From positions 1 to 22,049 of the IMG/VR virus record IMGVR_UViG_3300021365_000135: a stretch of DNA of 22,049 bases, one strand, 5' to 3'. This document shows positions 82 through 22,048 of the stretch, piece by piece. Each line of letters begins with the position of its first letter. The stretch's first letter is position 1. This DNA comes from a virus. Under the pieces are notes generated by a model, which worked only from the letters and a program-made list of their open reading frames with translations, made no database searches and was not told the DNA's origin. Made by a program: the position numbers and the translations under genes.

Positions 82-3000
82 CTAGCTTTCTAAAGCTTCT
101 ATTCTTGCCTCTAAAGCATCATTTTTTGTTGAAAGTTCTTTTACTGCATTTATTAAATACCAAGTTAAATTATCAGGATTTACACCTTTAACACCTGTAG
201 TTTCTGTTTTTACAACGTCTGGTAATATTTCTTCTATTTCCTGTGCTATCACACCAATTTGTGTTCCTTCTTTTGTTACTACTGCAGCAGCAGGGTTGTC
301 AAAATCTACAATTTCCTCTTCTGTTCTATATTCAAAGTTTCTAACCTGTATTTGATTTATTTTTTCTAGTCCAATATCGTTATTTACAATATTCTTTTTT
401 ATTCTTCTATCAGAAGTAGTTGACCAACTAGAAGAATTGTTACCTTGATAAACTCCACCACCATTAGGGTCAATCCATCCTGTACTACCACCTTTACCTG
501 ATGCAGTCCTTGTTGTTATGCAAATTGTATTCCAATCACTTGTTGATGCTGAGTTTGCACCATACCCAATATGTATATTTCTCGTTCCATTATCAAAACG
601 ACCTGCATGATAGCCAACTGCAACATTGTAATATCTGCCATTTGCAGTTTGTCCTGCACTATCACCAATGTATGTATTACCTACACCTGTAACTTCACTT
701 GCGCCTGCATTTATTCCTACACAAACATGACTTTCACCAGTGGTACAAACGCCAAGAGAATTTCTTCCTACTCCTACATTATAATTTCCTGTTGTATTTG
801 CACCCAAAGCATTTTGACCAACTGCTGTAAGATATGCACCTGTAGTATTAGCATCTAAAGCACTATGTCCAACTGCTGTGTTGTAAGATGCTGTCGTATT
901 CGCAGTTAAAGCAAGAGAACCTACTGCAACATTGTAACTTCCTGTAGTGTTTGCTGCCATAGCATCAGAACCTACTGCGGTGTTAACAGTGCCATCAGTG
1001 TTTGATGTTAAAGCACTTATGCCGACTGCAGTATTATTATTTGCTGTTGTAAGTGCTCCTAAAGTAGAAACACCTAAGGCTGTGTTACCACCGCCAGTTG
1101 TAAGAGCATCTAAAGACTGTTCGCCAAATGCAACATTAAAATCTCCTGTTGTTAAAGCTGCAAAAGAAGTTGTTGAAACTGCAGTGTTGTAATCAGCAGC
1201 ATTAATAGTTCCTGTGCTGTTAGAGCCAATCATTATGGAGGATGTGCCAAAAGTTTTAAATGTTGGTCCACTTGCTATAGTAGCAAAACTTAAAGTTCCA
1301 CTACCGTTTGTTGTTAGTGCTTGTCCGCTAGAACCATCGGATACATTTAATTGATCTATTCCAATTTGGTTATCATCTATATGTTGTGTTAATACTGCAT
1401 TATTTGCTATATGTATTGTTGCTACAGAACCAGTTGCGATTTCACTCGCTGCAACTTGGTTAGCTGCTATCTGTGTGCTTGTTACTGAGTTTCCTGCAAG
1501 TTCTACTGCGGAAACTGAATTTACTGCAAGTTTTGCATTTGTTACTTGATCGTCTCCGATATGTATTGTATCAATCGAACCAGTAACTAACTCACTTGAA
1601 TCTACTGAGTTTGCAGCGATCTCTGCTGAGCCGACTGCATTTGCTGCAATTGCAGTTGAAGATACTGAGTTTGCTCCTACTTCTGTAAGAGTAGTAACTT
1701 GACTAATATTTACTTCAATATTATCTGTTCCAGTTGGTGGAGCCTCTGAGAAAGTAAGTGTTGTTCCACTTAAGCTGTATGTTCCTTTTGGTTGATATAC
1801 ACCACCAACATATACTTGTGTATTTTCTTCTTGAATGGGATCCATTGAAAGTGTAAATGCTGTTGTAGAACCATCTCCATCTAAAGTGTCTACAATCATA
1901 GTTTTACCCATGACTACGCCACCAATTGTATATGCTATAACTTTTGTTCCGTTTACTGGTGCAGTATCAAATGTAAGAGTTGTGCTACTTACATTGAATG
2001 AGTCTGCGTTCTGGTATACACCATCTATAAATACAATTAAGTCTGTGTCTGATCCTGGTGCTTTTGAAAGTGTAAATGCTGTTGTAGAGCCATCTCCATT
2101 ATAAGAGTTATGATTAAATGCTCCACCTGTTGTTACATTTGATAAATTATTTATTTCAACACTTGTTCCGTTCGGTGGTGCAGTACTAAATGTTACTGTT
2201 GAGCCAGATGTTGAGTATGTTCCTTTTTCTTGGTAGACACCATCTACAAAGACCCAAGTAAGGCTCTCTGCATTAATTGTTGATCCTGTGTTAAAAGCTG
2301 TTGTTGAGCCATCTCCTGAAGCTTCATAAACAGCAACAGTTTGATTAAGACCAATACCACCTGATCCACCACCACCAGAGATTGTTTGATTTGATACATT
2401 TGTTATTCTTCCTTGCGCATCTACTGTAATTTGTGGTGAAACAGTTGTAGAACCATATGTTCCCGCTGATACTGCTGTATCTGCAAGTTTGTCTGCAGTG
2501 ACTGCGTCGTCTGCTAATTTAGCTGTTGTGATTGCTCCATCTGCAATGACTGCTGTACCATTTGAAGCTGCTGTTATACGACCGTCTGCATCAACTGTTA
2601 AATCTGTATTTGTATAAGAACCTGCTGTTACTGTAGTAGCTGCAAGTTCACTTGCTCCGACTGCTCCAGTTGCAATTTCTGTTGCTGTAACTGAATTTGC
2701 GGAAAGTCCTGTTGTTCCTGTAATTGTAATGGTGTCAGTACTTGCATTTGTTGTAAGTGTAATTCCTGTTCCTGCAGCAAAGGTTAAAGTATCTGTGGTG
2801 CTATCTGCAACAACATTACTCTGTCCAGATATTGCAATAGTAGAGAATACATTTTGTGACCCTCCTCCACCGCTTACTGTACTAAAGGAAAGAGATCCAG
2901 CACCATCTGTTGTTAAAACTTGACCGTTTGTTCCATCTGTAACATTTAATTGGTCTATTCCTACTTGGTTGTCATCAATGTGTTTTGTAAGAATAGAGTT

Positions 3001-4071
3001 TTGTGCAATCATTGTACTTTCGATTGCATTTGTTGCGATTGTTAATGCTCCGCTTGAAGCTAAAGTTGCGTCTCCACTAATAGAGACATTATCAAAACTA
3101 TTTGTTCCATCATGTACAAGAATTTGTCCACTAGAAGGAGAAGTTATATCTGTGTCAGAAGCGCCCGATAAACTTGATGCTACTGTAGAGAAGCTTAAAG
3201 TTCCTGCTCCATCTGTTGTAAGTGCTTGTCCACTTGTGCCGTCTGTCACATTAAGTTGATCAATACCAATTTGATCATCATCTACATGACGAGTAAGAAT
3301 ACTATTAGATGCTATTTTTGTGGCATCAACAGCATTATCTGCTATGTTTCCTGTTGCTATTGTATTATCAGCTATTTTTGCACTTGTTACTTGAGAATCA
3401 CCAATATGAATAGTATCAATACTTCCTGTTACAAGTTCACTAGAATCTACAGAGTTTGCTGCGATTTTTGCACTTGTTACTGCATTTGCTGCTAACTGGT
3501 CAGTTCCTACTTTACCATCTGCTATTGCATCTGAAGTAATATAAGAACCTGAACCCATGTAACCATGAGCAGAACATTGATAGTATAAAACCTGAGGAGT
3601 TGCTGTGGTTACAGCAATTTGTGTGTAAGCTCCTGCAGACCCAGGAGTACCATTTGTTGTTACACTTGTTGTGTATGCTGTTGTCTTATCTTCTTCTAAA
3701 TAAAATCTAAGAGGATGACCACTATTACTTGAATCTGCTTGATCAAATTTATATGTATTTCCTGGAATAAGGAGTAAGAAAGGACTTTCAAGACCGTCAA
3801 TACTATAACCACTTGCACTACCTGTTCCATATTGAGGATGAGCAGCAGTTTTTGTAATTACCTTTACATCATATGTTTGAGTACGAAATGTATGAACGCC
3901 TTGAGGCGCATACATACTAATAGCATCACCGCTATCTGTACCATCAACGTGTTTTCTTAAAAATAACTTACCGTCTTTTGTATTAATTGCAATTTCGCCT
4001 AAAGCTAAATCGGAAGTAGTTGGTAAGTTATTTGCGGTATTTGACCGTTTTAACTTAATTGTTTGTGCCAT
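82..4071 (-). CDS. Long tail fibre with cupredoxin-like insert, YadA-like repeats and S74 self-cleaving C-terminus
   Basis: This 1329-residue protein starts MAQTIKLKRS with GEIAINTKDGKLF, the same docking type as the 791-residue fibre. Residues about 60-178 form a cupredoxin-like domain with H119, C166, H169 and M172. AKIA-type repeats follow (about 185-260, 800-890), then three copies of a 40-residue module (261, 363, 896) and three GDGSTTAF domains (583-790). A YadA-head-like NTAVG..AL array covers 957-1155. The last 110 residues are a peptidase S74 intramolecular chaperone: S1220-D-R-R-I-K1225 gives the Ser-Lys pair, followed by GVIAQEIEEILPDVV and WYLINAVKEL. Known S74 domains drive trimerisation and then cut themselves off before the Ser, so the mature fibre should end near residue 1219. 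The ribosome site is weak (AGGAC). Confidence 0.92.
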   Translation of the reverse strand: MAQTIKLKRSNTANNLPTTSDLALGEIAINTKDGKLFLRKHVDGTDSGDAISMYAPQGVHTFRTQTYDVKVITKTAAHPQYGTGSASGYSIDGLESPFLLLIPGNTYKFDQADSSNSGHPLRFYLEEDKTTAYTTSVTTNGTPGSAGAYTQIAVTTATPQVLYYQCSAHGYMGSGSYITSDAIADGKVGTDQLAANAVTSAKIAANSVDSSELVTGSIDTIHIGDSQVTSAKIADNTIATGNIADNAVDATKIASNSILTRHVDDDQIGIDQLNVTDGTSGQALTTDGAGTLSFSTVASSLSGASDTDITSPSSGQILVHDGTNSFDNVSISGDATLASSGALTIATNAIESTMIAQNSILTKHIDDNQVGIDQLNVTDGTNGQVLTTDGAGSLSFSTVSGGGGSQNVFSTIAISGQSNVVADSTTDTLTFAAGTGITLTTNASTDTITITGTTGLSANSVTATEIATGAVGASELAATTVTAGSYTNTDLTVDADGRITAASNGTAVIADGAITTAKLADDAVTADKLADTAVSAGTYGSTTVSPQITVDAQGRITNVSNQTISGGGGSGGIGLNQTVAVYEASGDGSTTAFNTGSTINAESLTWVFVDGVYQEKGTYSTSGSTVTFSTAPPNGTSVEINNLSNVTTGGAFNHNSYNGDGSTTAFTLSKAPGSDTDLIVFIDGVYQNADSFNVSSTTLTFDTAPVNGTKVIAYTIGGVVMGKTMIVDTLDGDGSTTAFTLSMDPIQEENTQVYVGGVYQPKGTYSLSGTTLTFSEAPPTGTDNIEVNISQVTTLTEVGANSVSSTAIAANAVGSAEIAANSVDSSELVTGSIDTIHIGDDQVTNAKLAVNSVSAVELAGNSVTSTQIAANQVAASEIATGSVATIHIANNAVLTQHIDDNQIGIDQLNVSDGSSGQALTTNGSGTLSFATIASGPTFKTFGTSSIMIGSNSTGTINAADYNTAVSTTSFAALTTGDFNVAFGEQSLDALTTGGGNTALGVSTLGALTTANNNTAVGISALTSNTDGTVNTAVGSDAMAANTTGSYNVAVGSLALTANTTASYNTAVGHSALDANTTGAYLTAVGQNALGANTTGNYNVGVGRNSLGVCTTGESHVCVGINAGASEVTGVGNTYIGDSAGQTANGRYYNVAVGYHAGRFDNGTRNIHIGYGANSASTSDWNTICITTRTASGKGGSTGWIDPNGGGVYQGNNSSSWSTTSDRRIKKNIVNNDIGLEKINQIQVRNFEYRTEEEIVDFDNPAAAVVTKEGTQIGVIAQEIEEILPDVVKTETTGVKGVNPDNLTWYLINAVKELSTKNDALEARIEALES
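607..1203 (-). repeat. YadA-head-like NTAVG repeats
   Basis: About eight copies of a 14- to 24-residue unit of the form NTAVGxxALxANTTGxY cover residues about 957-1155 of the long fibre. This pattern is known from trimeric autotransporter heads, where each copy makes one turn of a left-handed beta roll. It lies just upstream of the C-terminal chaperone. Confidence 0.75.
1702..2325 (-). repeat. Three GDGSTTAF fibre domains
   Basis: Residues 583-790 of the long fibre contain three copies of a domain starting GDGSTTAF, with VYQxxxxYxxSGxTxTF and APPxGTxxxxN endings, at residues 586, 659 and 732. They are beta-sandwich-like units common in marine phage fibres. Confidence 0.75.
3538..3894 (-). 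other. Cupredoxin-like domain inside the fibre gene
   Basis: Residues about 60-178 of the long fibre carry IPGNTYKFDQADSSNSGHP and YYQCSAHGYMGSG. The H119, C166, H169 and M172 set matches the type I copper ligand set of cupredoxins (His, then Cys-x2-His-x2-Met). Whether copper is bound is inference. Confidence 0.7.
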
Positions 4072-4095
4072 ATTTATGGTTGTCCTGTTTTCTTA

Positions 4096-4107
4096 CTCTA
4101 TATAGAG
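4096..4107. other. 12-bp perfect palindrome in fibre-fibre gap
   Basis: CTCTATATAGAG is its own reverse complement and lies in the 41-base gap between the two large fibre genes. It could be an RNA hairpin or a chance palindrome. No polyT tract follows in the transcribed direction, so it is not called a terminator. Confidence 0.35.
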
Positions 4108-4112
4108 ATTCT

Positions 4113-6488
4113 TTAGAATGTTCCTCCGTCTATTGTATTTGTAAACTCTAGATCGTTTCCTGAAGAATTAATTTGTAATAATTGATTTGCACCACCTGAT
4201 GAAACTGCTAATCGTTTGTAACCGCCATTTGAGGCTTTACCAATTAATAAGTCACCAAGTGCTGTTGCTGTAACATCACCTTTTAATTTGATTTCATCTG
4301 CTGTAACAGAAAGTGTTACATCATCTGGAACTACATTAATTGTATTACCAGATTTTGTTAAACCATTTCCTGCTGTTATTTGACCAGCACCTGAGAATTG
4401 TGTAAATGTTAAGTTTGTAGTATTTAATGTAATTACATTATTTGTTGTAAGTACGTAACCTTGATCAGCATTTGCTGTACCTTCTTCCACCCACACAAAC
4501 ATACCTGAAGTAACATCTACACTGGCGTTTGCATCATCTGAACGAGCAGGTGTTCCACCTGAAGCAACTGCTACGTATATTCCATTTTCAGAGGCAGTTG
4601 TTTGGTTTTTAAGAAGAACCCTATCCCCTGCTACAAGGGTAACACCATCAATTGTGTCACCGGCTTCTAGTCCAGAAGAACCTGCTGTTAAAGAAACGTT
4701 AGCTGTTGACGCTACATGTACTGATGCTTTAATATCAAGTGCTTGTTTTACTGCATCAACATATCCTTTTGTTACAAGAGTAAGTGCGTTTTGCCCACTT
4801 CTATCATCATAACCAGAAGGAACTTTAACAGTACCTGTACCATTTGGAGATAAAGTTATATCGCCATCTGAATCTGTGCTGGAAATTGTATTTCCATTAA
4901 TATTAATATTGTCGACATCTAAGTCTCCAGTAATATCTGTAGCGGCTGTAACCGCAAATGTTGTGCCATCAAATGTAAAGTTAGCATCATCTTCAAGTTC
5001 ACCTGAAGTACCTGCAATTACAATTCTATTGTTTGTTAGATCAGAAACTTTTGCAGTTGACATTGTAGTCGAACCAACATTAAGTGATCCACTAATATCT
5101 GCATTACCATTGATATCAATAGTTGTTGCAGTAATATCAACTTCTGTGTCTGCTGCTATTGCTAATGTACCGTCTGAAGGAGAAGAAACGTTTATTGCAG
5201 AGTCTCTAAACTCGAGTTTTATTGCATCATTTAAACGAAGTGCTGTATCTGCAACGTGTGTAAGTGTTACATCATTGTCTGCACCAAATCCTAAGACTGC
5301 TGAATCACTGTCAAGTTTAAGATCATTGCTAATGTTTACAGAATTAGAAGCATTAATATCTACGATTGGAGAAGTAATTTCAACTTCGCTATCACCGTCA
5401 ATATCAAGTTGTCCGTCTGTGCTAGAATTAATTGATAGTCCAGTATCTCTGAACTGTAGTGCCATTCCTGAATTAAATTGTAATGCGCTATCTGCAACGT
5501 GTGTAAGTGTTACATCTCCGTCTGCTCCAAAAGCAAGTACTTGTCCATCTGTATTAAATTCAACTGTCGGAGTTGTTATTTCTAGTTCGACGTCAGCAGC
5601 AATATCTAATTGTCCATTTACTGAAGAACCAATAGTAAGTGCTGAATCTCTAAATTGTATTTCACTTGCTGAGTTTAAAAGTAATCCTGTATCAGCAACA
5701 TGTGTAAGTGTTACATCTCCATCTGCTCCAAAAGATACTACTTGACTATCAGTATCAAATTGTACTGTAGGTGCTGTAATTTCTAGTAGAGTGTCTACGT
5801 CAATGTCGAGCTGTCCGTCTGCAGAAGATCCAATGCTTATTGCTGAATCTCTAAATTGGAAAACGCTAGTGCTATTAAGAAGTAAACCAGTATCGGCAAC
5901 ATGAGTTAAGTTTACATCATTATCTGCTCCAAAGTTTAAGACCGCTGCATCTGAAATTAAAGATACATCATCTGCGAAAGTAGCATCCTGTCCGATTACT
6001 ACTGCTTCGCTTGAATTTGTTGTTACAAGTTTTATATAAGAGTTAGTAGATTCTTTTAGTTCAAAAGATGCTGCACTATTATCAAGTAATGTTACTGCAT
6101 TTGCTTGACCACTTAAATCTAAAGTTCCGCCATGAGTAATGACTAAATTACCGGTAGGTGCTATTGTAAGATTCCCACTTGAAGTAGAAATAGTATCAGT
6201 TGAACCAGTAACTACAATGTTACCACTTAATAGTTCATTTATCTTTTTATTGGAGTCAACAATTAGTGCTGAACTTGCTGTATTCGTACCATGTACATGG
6301 TCGAGCATATCAGTAAAGTATTTACCACCAATTATTAAATTTGCGCCATCAGCAGGATTACCTACAAATAGTCTAGAGCCTGAGCCACCTTGTGCGCCCG
6401 CTCCGCCTGTATAAGCTAACTCACCAGCAGTAAGGCTACTTGGAGCCGAAGTACCTGTGGATCTTTTTATCTTAATTGTTGTTGCCAT
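4113..6488 (-). CDS. Tail fibre protein with four LTHVADT repeats
   Basis: This 791-residue protein has the marine-phage fibre N-terminus: MATTIKIKRS, then LTAGELAY, RLFVG and KYFTDMLDHVHG. The central part holds four units starting at residues 186, 253, 320 and 401, each with FGADxDVxLTHVADT, QFRDS, GQLDI and EITxPTV. Spacing is 67, 67 and 81 residues, which suggests a trimeric beta-helical shaft. A second domain around residues 555-705 includes ALTLVTKGYVDAVKQALD and GDRVLLKNQTTASENGIYVA, common in phage fibre tips. The end is NTIDGGTF, related to the tags of the two preceding proteins. No intramolecular chaperone domain is present, so folding may need a helper. This is a long side fibre or shaft. 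Receptor specificity is unknown. Confidence 0.88.
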   Translation of the reverse strand: MATTIKIKRSTGTSAPSSLTAGELAYTGGAGAQGGSGSRLFVGNPADGANLIIGGKYFTDMLDHVHGTNTASSALIVDSNKKINELLSGNIVVTGSTDTISTSSGNLTIAPTGNLVITHGGTLDLSGQANAVTLLDNSAASFELKESTNSYIKLVTTNSSEAVVIGQDATFADDVSLISDAAVLNFGADNDVNLTHVADTGLLLNSTSVFQFRDSAISIGSSADGQLDIDVDTLLEITAPTVQFDTDSQVVSFGADGDVTLTHVADTGLLLNSASEIQFRDSALTIGSSVNGQLDIAADVELEITTPTVEFNTDGQVLAFGADGDVTLTHVADSALQFNSGMALQFRDTGLSINSSTDGQLDIDGDSEVEITSPIVDINASNSVNISNDLKLDSDSAVLGFGADNDVTLTHVADTALRLNDAIKLEFRDSAINVSSPSDGTLAIAADTEVDITATTIDINGNADISGSLNVGSTTMSTAKVSDLTNNRIVIAGTSGELEDDANFTFDGTTFAVTAATDITGDLDVDNININGNTISSTDSDGDITLSPNGTGTVKVPSGYDDRSGQNALTLVTKGYVDAVKQALDIKASVHVASTANVSLTAGSSGLEAGDTIDGVTLVAGDRVLLKNQTTASENGIYVAVASGGTPARSDDANASVDVTSGMFVWVEEGTANADQGYVLTTNNVITLNTTNLTFTQFSGAGQITAGNGLTKSGNTINVVPDDVTLSVTADEIKLKGDVTATALGDLLIGKASNGGYKRLAVSSGGANQLLQINSSGNDLEFTNTIDGGTF
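5139..5933 (-). repeat. Four tandem fibre repeats encoding FGADxDVxLTHVADT units
   Basis: The repeat spans residues about 186-450 of the 791-residue fibre, with the unit starting at F186, F253, F320 and F401. The units share motif order but vary at the nucleotide level, so they are not recent duplications. Each unit places one His (196, 263, 330, 411) in the same LTHVADT context. Confidence 0.8.
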
Positions 6489-20779: not shown

Positions 20780-21205
20780 TTATCTTTTTATATTTGCTGA
20801 GTTAATCCCAGTGCCTTTAGCCTTCGATCTACTTTCTGCGGCTTTACGTTTTCTTTCTAAATCTTTATTTATATTTGCTGAATTTCTTGCTTCAATATGT
20901 TTCAAGAAAAATACAGTTGTTTTGGAGTCTTTTACATCCCAAATTTTCAATAAAGTTCCTAAGGCGGATAAATCTTTTCCAAAGTACGATCCACTCATAC
21001 CGTCCCAACGATCTGGTAAAAGGTCATGCAATAAAAAAGCCACCTGAACTTCAAAAGGATAATCTTCCGTAGTTGGTGGCATTTCTTCAGGGTCAGGGTC
21101 TGCTCCTGTCTGTTCACACATATCTAAGTAAACATCAAGAGTGACTTGCCCGTCTTTGTATTGTTTGTCTAAGAGACCAAGTATTTGTCTTACTTGGCTC
21201 TGGTA
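20780..21205 (-). CDS. Tail assembly chaperone, T-like frameshift extension (made as GT fusion)
   Basis: This is the -1 frame continuation of the G gene. A slip at 21205-21211 joins residue 139 of G to 141 residues encoded here, giving a GT fusion of about 280 residues. The first ATG in this frame (21121) has no Shine-Dalgarno. The frame is open back through the heptamer and first blocked by a TGA just upstream of it, so the 28 codons before the ATG are coding only through frameshifting. The T part starts with a helical stretch (YQSQVRQILGLLDKQ) and ends in a strongly basic, Lys/Arg-rich tail. In lambda the T domain of GT contacts the tube protein while the G part binds the tape measure, and that division of labour probably applies here. 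The gene abuts the tape measure start exactly, which suggests translational coupling. Confidence 0.88.
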   Translation of the reverse strand, partial: YQSQVRQILGLLDKQYKDGQVTLDVYLDMCEQTGADPDPEEMPPTTEDYPFEVQVAFLLHDLLPDRWDGMSGSYFGKDLSALGTLLKIWDVKDSKTTVFFLKHIEARNSANINKDLERKRKAAESRSKAKGTGINSANIKR

Positions 21206-21211
21206 AAATTT
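21172..21211 (-). promoter_or_regulatory. Programmed -1 ribosomal frameshift signal (heptamer plus hairpin)
   Basis: The minus-strand heptamer A AAT TTT (21205-21211) is in the zero frame of the G gene and fits X XXY YYZ, so both tRNAs can re-pair after a -1 slip. Three bases downstream begins a stem-loop (21172-21201): 4 bp (AGAG/CTCT), one bulged T, then 7 perfect bp (CCAAGTA/TACTTGG) around the loop AGACAAA. The zero-frame TAA stop is inside this hairpin. After the slip the -1 frame is open to 20780. Position between the chaperone and the tape measure matches the classical G/GT frameshift of tailed phages. Confidence 0.9.
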
Positions 21212-21621
21212 TCTAAATCACCTGTTACTTCTGTAACCCAAGTGTCGAAATCAGCTGCATTTTTCATCAGCGTTTCAGCGTTTTCTTGAGAAAATAAAAG
21301 TTCATCTTCGGGATCTAGACTACTAATGTCCACCAATAGAAGCTCTTCGAGGTAAGAATATTTTAAGCCTTTCCATCCCTTAATTACAGCTTTTACATAC
21401 TCTACTAAAAACTTATCTTCATCTAATTGTTCATCAAATGCTCTAGTTTTACGATTGAACTTTTGAGATAAACAACGATTTCGTAGTTTTAGCAGTTCTT
21501 CCCTTGCCAAGTAGCAAAGGTCGACTGAAAATCCAGCCGTTCCTGGATAATCAACTGAAACTGTTTTGCTTGGAGTTAATAAACTCGCTAGTGATACTGA
21601 TTTGTTTTCTTGTTCTGTCAT
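21190..21621 (-). CDS. Tail assembly chaperone, G-like (zero-frame product)
   Basis: This 143-residue acidic protein sits between the tail tube and tape measure genes, the position of lambda G. Such chaperones coat the tape measure protein and recruit tube subunits during tail polymerisation, and are absent from the finished virion. A helical central part (LAREELLKLRNRCLSQKFNR) is followed by an acidic C-terminal half. The start ATG has an AGGA Shine-Dalgarno a few bases upstream. The last codons contain the slippery heptamer A AAT TTT, and the TAA stop lies inside a hairpin, so a fraction of ribosomes should shift to the -1 frame and make a longer GT-type protein. Sequence similarity to a named family is not obvious by eye. 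The call rests on gene order plus the frameshift architecture, which is diagnostic for this gene pair. Confidence 0.85.
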   Translation of the reverse strand: MTEQENKSVSLASLLTPSKTVSVDYPGTAGFSVDLCYLAREELLKLRNRCLSQKFNRKTRAFDEQLDEDKFLVEYVKAVIKGWKGLKYSYLEELLLVDISSLDPEDELLFSQENAETLMKNAADFDTWVTEVTGDLENFTRAK

Positions 21622-21673: not shown

Positions 21674-22048
21674 TTATGTTACGGTTGGTCCTACAAACTC
21701 CATTGTTATTTCGTCTGTTGTATCAACTGAAGTTGGTAAAGCGTGGAAAGTTGTTTCCAAGCTTATAATATCATCAATTGAATGTGTAGGTACTTCCAAG
21801 TGACATGTTGGTAATGTCATTGTAACTCTTGGAGTATTACTTGTTCCACCTATTACAAATACTAGATTGAAGTCATTTGTTGTTGTTGAGGTTGACTCAA
21901 GAATGTCTTCAAATAAATCCGCACTTGAGGCGCCACTTGCAGGAGTATTCAAGTAACAAGTAAAATTACCTGATACAGAACGAGTTCCTGTAACGTGCCC
22001 TAAAGGTTGATTCACAATTCCTAGTGTTTCTGGTGTTAAGAAAGTCAT
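21674..22048 (-). CDS. Major tail tube protein, C-terminal part (probably truncated by window edge)
   Basis: The visible 124 residues are beta-rich, Thr/Ser-rich and acidic, with no membrane segment or signal peptide. The gene lies immediately before the G/GT chaperone pair and the tape measure, where lambda-like phages carry the tail tube protein (lambda V). Repeated subunits of that protein stack into the tube through which DNA passes. The first Met is only one base from the window edge. The segment that follows (LGIVNQPLGHVTG) looks like the middle of a tube protein rather than an N-terminus, so I infer that this Met is internal and the gene continues outside. A strong terminator follows the stop codon, consistent with a separately dosed, highly expressed structural gene. 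The assignment rests mainly on gene order. A small stand-alone tail protein is the alternative. Confidence 0.65.
   Translation of the reverse strand: MTFLTPETLGIVNQPLGHVTGTRSVSGNFTCYLNTPASGASSADLFEDILESTSTTTNDFNLVFVIGGTSNTPRVTMTLPTCHLEVPTHSIDDIISLETTFHALPTSVDTTDEITMEFVGPTVT

What the first reader, a model, noticed from the sequence alone, without database searches (positions are those of the whole stretch)
21172..21211. Complete programmed -1 frameshift cassette for a G/GT tail chaperone
Slippery heptamer A AAT TTT in the zero frame, a 3-base spacer, then an 11-bp bulged hairpin that buries the zero-frame stop, with an open -1 frame of 141 codons behind it. This is the textbook architecture, but with A AAT TTT instead of the lambda G GGA AAG heptamer. 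It predicts a fusion of about 280 residues and means the downstream T frame has no independent start.
Basis: partly seen in the sequence, partly recalled or inferred. Interest (0 to 1): 0.72.

Follow-up and report, generated by a model that had tools for sequence, protein, structure and literature searches.

The report
Frameshift switch in phage tail chaperones
A marine phage makes a longer version of a tail-building protein by having ribosomes slip back one base at a fixed spot; relatives in the T5 phage family appear to slip forward one base at the same spot, so the direction of slipping seems to have switched during evolution.

Summary
On the minus strand, G (21621-21190) carries A AAT TTT at 21211-21205. 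An 11-bp, once-bulged hairpin (21201-21172) buries the G stop codon, and T is open in the -1 frame to 20780, giving a 280-residue fusion. Order: major tail protein, G, T, tape measure.

In 117 relatives of G (>60% identity to the query) the codons GAA-AAT-TTT are 116/117, 117/117 and 117/117, against a mean of 78% for other two-fold codons. The downstream hairpin is retained (mean z -4.0) with a compensatory C-G to G-C swap, in two topologies. T codons before the first possible start evolve under purifying selection.

The unexpected part: across 192 distinct junctions of this homologous pair, 137 put T in -1 (A_AAU_UUU, G_GGA_AAC, A_AAA_AAC) and 54 in +1, including all 14 T5-family phages first sampled. 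Of these 54, 52 have UUU_CGN, the influenza PA-X/amalgavirus +1 motif, on or near the same conserved Phe. A Klebsiella phage paper says T5-like phages lack a predicted frameshift signal; one T5-like record does annotate a joined fusion.

The window itself is a well-supported new member of a known kind; the direction switch is the interesting part. Nothing was tested at the bench.

The parts
21190..21621 (-). G: tail assembly chaperone, zero frame, 143 aa
   Evidence: PHROG 313 'Tail assembly chaperone' E 1.2e-10; tblastn hits to 902 phage records, 37-40% identical to the best Vibrio phages; AlphaFold2 pLDDT 83
21205..21211 (-). slippery heptamer A AAT TTT (zero frame A|AAT|TTT)
   Evidence: read directly; AAT 117/117 and TTT 117/117 in relatives, GAA 116/117
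21172..21201 (-). downstream hairpin, 11 bp with one bulge and a 7-nt loop; conserved core CAAGUA/UACUUG starts 8 nt after the heptamer
   Evidence: mean z -4.0 over 103 distinct relatives; compensatory C-G/G-C at one core pair in 42/12 sequences; two alternative 3' arms
21190..21192 (-). zero-frame stop TAA, two bases in the stem and one in the loop
   Evidence: TAA or TAG at the same place in all 103 relatives
20780..21205 (-). T: -1 frame, 141 codons plus stop, read only as a C-terminal extension of G
   Evidence: PHROG 3914 'tail assembly chaperone' E 8.5e-16; first possible start is codon 28 (21121); pN/pS 0.27 upstream of it; AlphaFold2 pLDDT 93 with an ordered first helix
17705..20779 (-). 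tape measure protein, ATG immediately after the T stop
   Evidence: PHROG 3779 E 2.5e-46
21674..22048 (-). major tail protein, C-terminal part (cut by the window end)
   Evidence: PHROG 3575 E 2.8e-18

Best explanation
This is a programmed -1 ribosomal frameshift that makes two tail assembly chaperones from one gene. Most ribosomes read G to its stop and release a 143-residue protein. A minority, with tRNA-Asn on AAU and tRNA-Phe on UUU, meet the hairpin that contains the stop codon, slip back one base (to AAA and UUU) and continue into T, giving a 280-residue G-T fusion ending ...GDLENF-YQSQVRQILG... By analogy with lambda, G coats the tape measure protein and T recruits the tail tube subunit, and both leave before the tail is finished. 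Shown here: the architecture, its conservation, homology to annotated chaperones and purifying selection on T upstream of any start. Inferred: slippage itself, its rate, and the roles of the two proteins.
For: Architecture. Homology and gene order. AAAATTTT in all 47 distinct junctions of the first survey, T always at -1; 119 of 137 -1 junctions in the wider survey have AAATTTT and 17 of the remaining 18 another canonical XXXYYYZ. Synonymous codons frozen at the heptamer only: neighbouring Leu uses six codons and Thr four. Conserved stem with covariation in two topologies, against slid controls. T conserved before its first start, pN/pS 0.27. Predicted last helix of G ends at the shift Phe and an ordered helix starts at T residue 2.
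Against: No protein-level evidence exists. The heptamer and hairpin are not universal in the family: GGGAAAC members mostly lack a strong hairpin, so the hairpin may be a modulator, not a requirement. One relative (L260) has GAATTTT, not a perfect XXX. P-site re-pairing of tRNA-Asn on AAA is imperfect (established codon-anticodon rules), so the rate could be very low.
Confidence: 0.93

Rival explanations
1. T is an independent gene started inside the frame (ATG at 21121 or an unusual start), and the overlap with G is only genome compaction.
For: An ATG exists at codon 28 of T, and public T5-like records annotate T from internal ATGs.
Against: T codons 13-27, before any start, are under purifying selection like the rest (pN/pS 0.27 against 0.31). 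The predicted fold includes a confident helix at residues 2-15 and the ATG falls inside the second helix. The position of the first start is not conserved (codons 19 to 43). No G-rich ribosome-binding site precedes the ATG (read). It does not explain the frozen heptamer.
Confidence: 0.04
2. RNA polymerase slippage, not the ribosome, produces the -1 mRNA.
For: The site is an A4T4 tract.
Against: The longest run is 4 bases, well below the long A or T runs known for transcriptional slippage (general knowledge). A stem burying the stop codon covaries downstream. Homologues use GGGAAAC and UUU_CGN, which are ribosomal motifs.
Confidence: 0.02
3. The frame change is a sequencing or assembly error in one contig.
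For: None beyond the general possibility.
Against: 119 distinct -1 junctions with AAATTTT come from many independent assemblies, all with the same offset.
Confidence: 0.005
4. For the +1 branch only: the T frame is reached by a -2 shift, as in phage Mu, not by +1 at UUU_CGN.
For: +1 and -2 lead to the same frame. Mu gpGT uses -2 (PMC3498833). The joined CDS in T5-like phage Shivani spans 832 bases and its database protein is 277 residues, which by arithmetic fits a 2-base back-step (277 aa), not +1 (276 aa).
Against: No -2 slip motif is shared by the branch, while UUU_CGN is present in 52 of 54 distinct junctions and is a demonstrated +1 shifter in influenza A (PMC3498833, PMC5052127).
Confidence: 0.15

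Closest known systems
Phage lambda G/GT tail assembly chaperone frameshift (G GGA AAG, -1)
   Same: Same gene order, -1 direction, overlapping G and T frames, low-ratio fusion (lambda about 30:1, PMC5009743).
   Different: Heptamer A AAT TTT; conserved stop-burying hairpin; no Pfam match for G or T here. Homology to lambda G was not shown.
T5-family (Demerecviridae) tape measure chaperones, PHROG 313 and 3914
   Same: Homologous G and T: G 28-40% identical; T -1 profile against +1 profile E 1.8e-40. Same gene order, shift site on or near the same Phe.
   Different: T lies in the +1 frame at UUU_CGN and no strong downstream hairpin was found. A Klebsiella phage paper states that T5 and Sugarland lack a predicted frameshift signal (PMC6256483); the Shivani record has a joined fusion CDS.
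UUU_CGN +1 frameshifting in influenza A PA-X and plant amalgaviruses (PMC3498833, PMC5052127)
   Same: The same UUU_CGN motif at the junction in the +1 branch of this phage family.
   Different: Eukaryotic RNA viruses; no homology; bacterial ribosomes not tested.
Phage Mu gpGT (-2) and haloarchaeal HSTV-2 (+1) tail chaperones
   Same: Tail chaperone fusions made by a shift that is not -1 (PMC3498833, PMC5009743).
   Different: Here both directions occur within one alignable gene pair, on or near one conserved residue.
HK97-type tail assembly chaperone
   Same: Two-protein chaperone by -1 shift, 6-7% measured for genes similar to HK97 (PMC3711429).
   Different: Structure match of window G to HK97 chaperone 2ob9 is not significant (E 2.3).

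Membership tests
G/GT-type frameshifted tail assembly chaperone | Located between major tail protein and tape measure gene | tested here: met
   PHROG 3575 upstream, PHROG 3779 directly downstream
G/GT-type frameshifted tail assembly chaperone | Sequence match to annotated tail chaperones for both halves | tested here: met
   PHROG 313 and 3914; no Pfam or NCBIfam family reaches its cut-off
G/GT-type frameshifted tail assembly chaperone | XXXYYYZ heptamer in the zero frame before the G stop, T open in -1 across it | tested here: met
   conserved
G/GT-type frameshifted tail assembly chaperone | T lacks its own start | tested here: met
   No start for 28 codons in the window; 100 of 117 relatives have none upstream of the slip either
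G/GT-type frameshifted tail assembly chaperone | Fusion made at a low, fixed ratio and required for tails | not testable with these tools
   Needs mass spectrometry, reporters or genetics
G/GT-type frameshifted tail assembly chaperone | Fold like solved tail chaperones | tested here: inconclusive
   HK97 chaperone 2ob9 among top PDB matches but E 2.3, TM 0.36. Predicted T5-family chaperones match well: E 6.6e-14 for G, 3.1e-7 for T
lambda-type heptamer G GGA AAG | Identical heptamer | tested here: not met
   A AAT TTT here; G GGA AAC occurs in 12 distant -1 relatives
UUU_CGN +1 frameshift sites (applied to the T5-family branch, not to the window) | UUU_CGN in frame, inside the zero/+1 overlap | tested here: met
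   52 of 54 distinct junctions; two have UUU_CAC
UUU_CGN +1 frameshift sites (applied to the T5-family branch, not to the window) | Measured +1 product | not testable with these tools
   None known for these phages in the papers searched

The most novel reading that the evidence does not exclude
One homologous chaperone gene pair has switched the direction of its programmed frameshift, -1 at A_AAU_UUU (or G_GGA_AAC) in marine phages and +1 at UUU_CGN in the T5 family, while the site stayed on or near the same conserved Phe codon. Two relatives (L344, L358) carry the composite A_AAU_UUU_CGN with T in -1 and look like bridging states. T5-like phages, described as lacking a frameshift signal, would make a +1 fusion.
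Probability: 0.65. Interest if true: 0.65.

Novelty: new variant of a known kind. Interest (0 to 1): 0.52.

Why it matters
It gives a natural series in which the protein product is held constant while the recoding signal changes heptamer, structure and probably direction. That makes the question of how frameshift signals evolve and switch testable with two codons and a reporter. It also predicts a specific, unrecognised +1 fusion in laboratory T5-like phages, and it suggests that many public T5-family records annotate T with a false internal start.

Tried and rejected
Megablast of the 7-kb tail module against phages: no match. T of the window by tblastn in phages: no match, so T homology to T5-family T was shown by direct alignment and profile comparison. 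A first profile comparison that included its own target was discarded as biased. PDB sequence searches gave nothing relevant. Considered and rejected: independent start of T, transcriptional slippage, assembly error, and the hairpin as a terminator (no T run follows it; the scan finds a terminator elsewhere). Literature for A AAU UUU in tail chaperones: no paper found; Xu 2004 and 2013 not held, so whether A_AAU_UUU is listed there is unknown.

Full report
What is there. The window is a 22,049-base virus record carrying a siphophage tail module on the minus strand. The order is major tail protein (C-terminal part, PHROG 3575), G (PHROG 313, tail assembly chaperone), T (PHROG 3914, tail assembly chaperone), tape measure (PHROG 3779), then lambda-like minor tail, tail L, JAB-domain and tail assembly proteins. 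The end of G reads GAT TTA GAA AAT TTT ACC AGA GCC AAG TAA. The heptamer A AAT TTT lies at 21211-21205. A hairpin of 11 bp with one bulged U and a 7-nt loop spans 21201-21172 and takes in the stop codon. T is open in the -1 frame from 21205 to 20780. The fusion would be 139 + 141 = 280 residues.

Is it more than chance? The heptamer alone is not remarkable in this A+T-rich genome: XXXYYYZ occurs in frame 30 times in about 7,000 codons and AAATTTT five times. Conservation decides. In 47 distinct relative junctions from viral contigs AAAATTTT is invariant and T is always in -1. In 117 sequences whose G is more than 60% identical to the query, codon choice is frozen only at the slip site: GAA 116/117, AAT 117/117, TTT 117/117. 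Other two-fold codons average 78% for the commonest codon, the Leu just before uses six codons and the Thr just after uses four. These sequences are related, so the counts are not independent events, but the contrast with neighbouring codons in the same sequences holds regardless.

The hairpin. Over 103 distinct downstream sequences the folding energy is on average 4.0 standard deviations below shuffled versions. Two topologies share the same 5' arm, CAAGUA or CAAGUAG, which contains the stop codon. One pairs with UACUUG after a 7-nt loop (54 sequences, the window's type); the other pairs with CUACUUG further downstream (48 sequences). In the first type one core pair is C-G in 42 and G-C in 12 sequences, and pairing collapses when the arms are slid by one to three bases. 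The core begins 8 nt after the heptamer, a usual distance; the lower pairs that give the window its 3-nt spacer vary between relatives.

T has no start of its own. In the window the first ATG/GTG/TTG of the T frame is codon 28 (counting from 0 at the first codon after the slip). In 100 of 117 relatives there is no start upstream of the slip either, and the first downstream start wanders mostly between codons 19 and 43. Codons 13-27, which only a fusion would translate, have pN/pS 0.27 against 0.31 for codons 28-80 (uncorrected proportions). AlphaFold2 models of the two halves put the last helix of G at residues 123-139, ending at the shift Phe, and a confident first helix of T at residues 2-15. 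A fusion may form one continuous helix; that is inference, since the halves were modelled apart.

The wider family. G of the window is 37-40% identical to G of T5-family Vibrio phages. In those phages the T homologue lies in the +1 frame. I collected 192 distinct junctions. T is in -1 in 137, in +1 in 54, and one is unresolved. Among the 137: A_AAU_UUU 119, G_GGA_AAC 12, A_AAA_AAC 4, A_AAU_UUC 1, and one (L260) with GAATTTT. Among the 54: UUU_CGN in 52 and UUU_CAC in 2, always UUU, whereas the same G genes use UUC for 38% of Phe codons. In 42 of the 54 a +1-frame stop lies 5 bases upstream of that UUU, so the shift cannot be earlier. The Phe is invariant in 49 aligned G proteins from both branches. 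For A_AAU_UUU and UUU_CGN it is the slipping codon; G_GGA_AAC usually sits just before it; the A_AAA_AAC members have moved the slip to the end of an extended G. T of the -1 branch and T of the +1 branch align at E 1.8e-40 as separate profiles.

Tree and bridges. On a tree of 67 representatives built without the shift-site residues, the +1 and -1 states need two changes at fewest and well-supported branches force one. Deep placement is unsure because several rows are long, and the method was the quick one. Two long -1 rows, L344 and L358, read A_AAU_UUU_CGG and A_AAU_UUU_CGC, so they hold both motifs at once. They also lack the hairpin, as do most G_GGA_AAC members. The hairpin therefore looks like an addition of the A_AAU_UUU clade (and, separately, of the A_AAA_AAC members).

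What is known. Lambda G/GT, Mu (-2), HSTV-2 (+1) and HK97-type chaperones establish the kind (PMC5009743, PMC3498833, PMC3711429). UUU_CGN is a demonstrated +1 shifter in influenza A and the likely one in plant amalgaviruses (PMC3498833, PMC5052127). [quoted passage not shown] The 277-residue length of its product fits a -2 rather than a +1 join. Most other T5-like records sampled split G and T with an internal start for T. Neither A_AAU_UUU in a tail chaperone nor UUU_CGN in phages was found in the papers searched, but key papers are not held.

Verdict. The window feature is a genuine -1 programmed frameshift by every comparative test available, and ordinary in kind. The T5-family +1 sites and the apparent switch of direction on or near one conserved residue are the part worth pursuing.

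Noticed in passing
window 21660-21643, minus strand: Terminator-like hairpin GGGAGGGGAAACCCTCCC followed by TCTTTTAA, about 20 nt before G, between the major tail protein and G; 75 of 111 relatives have a comparable one. It could lower G/GT transcription relative to the tail tube protein.
   Followed up: partly
L344 and L358: Composite shift site A_AAU_UUU_CGN with T in -1 and no downstream hairpin; candidates for a bridge between -1 and +1 recoding.
   Followed up: partly
L224 and L236: +1 relatives with UUU_CAC in place of UUU_CGN.
   Followed up: no
L379 (KP143763.1 93207-94038): Salmonella phage Shivani has a joined chaperone CDS whose product length fits a 2-base back-step; the DNA has ACT TTT CGT, for which +1 seems more likely.
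   Followed up: partly
L377 (Aeromonas phage Akh-2): T homologue found, but G is not an intact open frame in the stretch read; annotated genes there are fragmentary, perhaps sequence errors.
   Followed up: no
PHROG 313 (258 positions): This public family seems to mix G-only and G-T fusion proteins: T5-family T matches its positions 170-258.
   Followed up: no
window 82-6488, minus strand: Two very long tail-fibre-like proteins with repeated motifs; the first ends in a region that looks like an intramolecular chaperone domain (read by eye).
   Followed up: no
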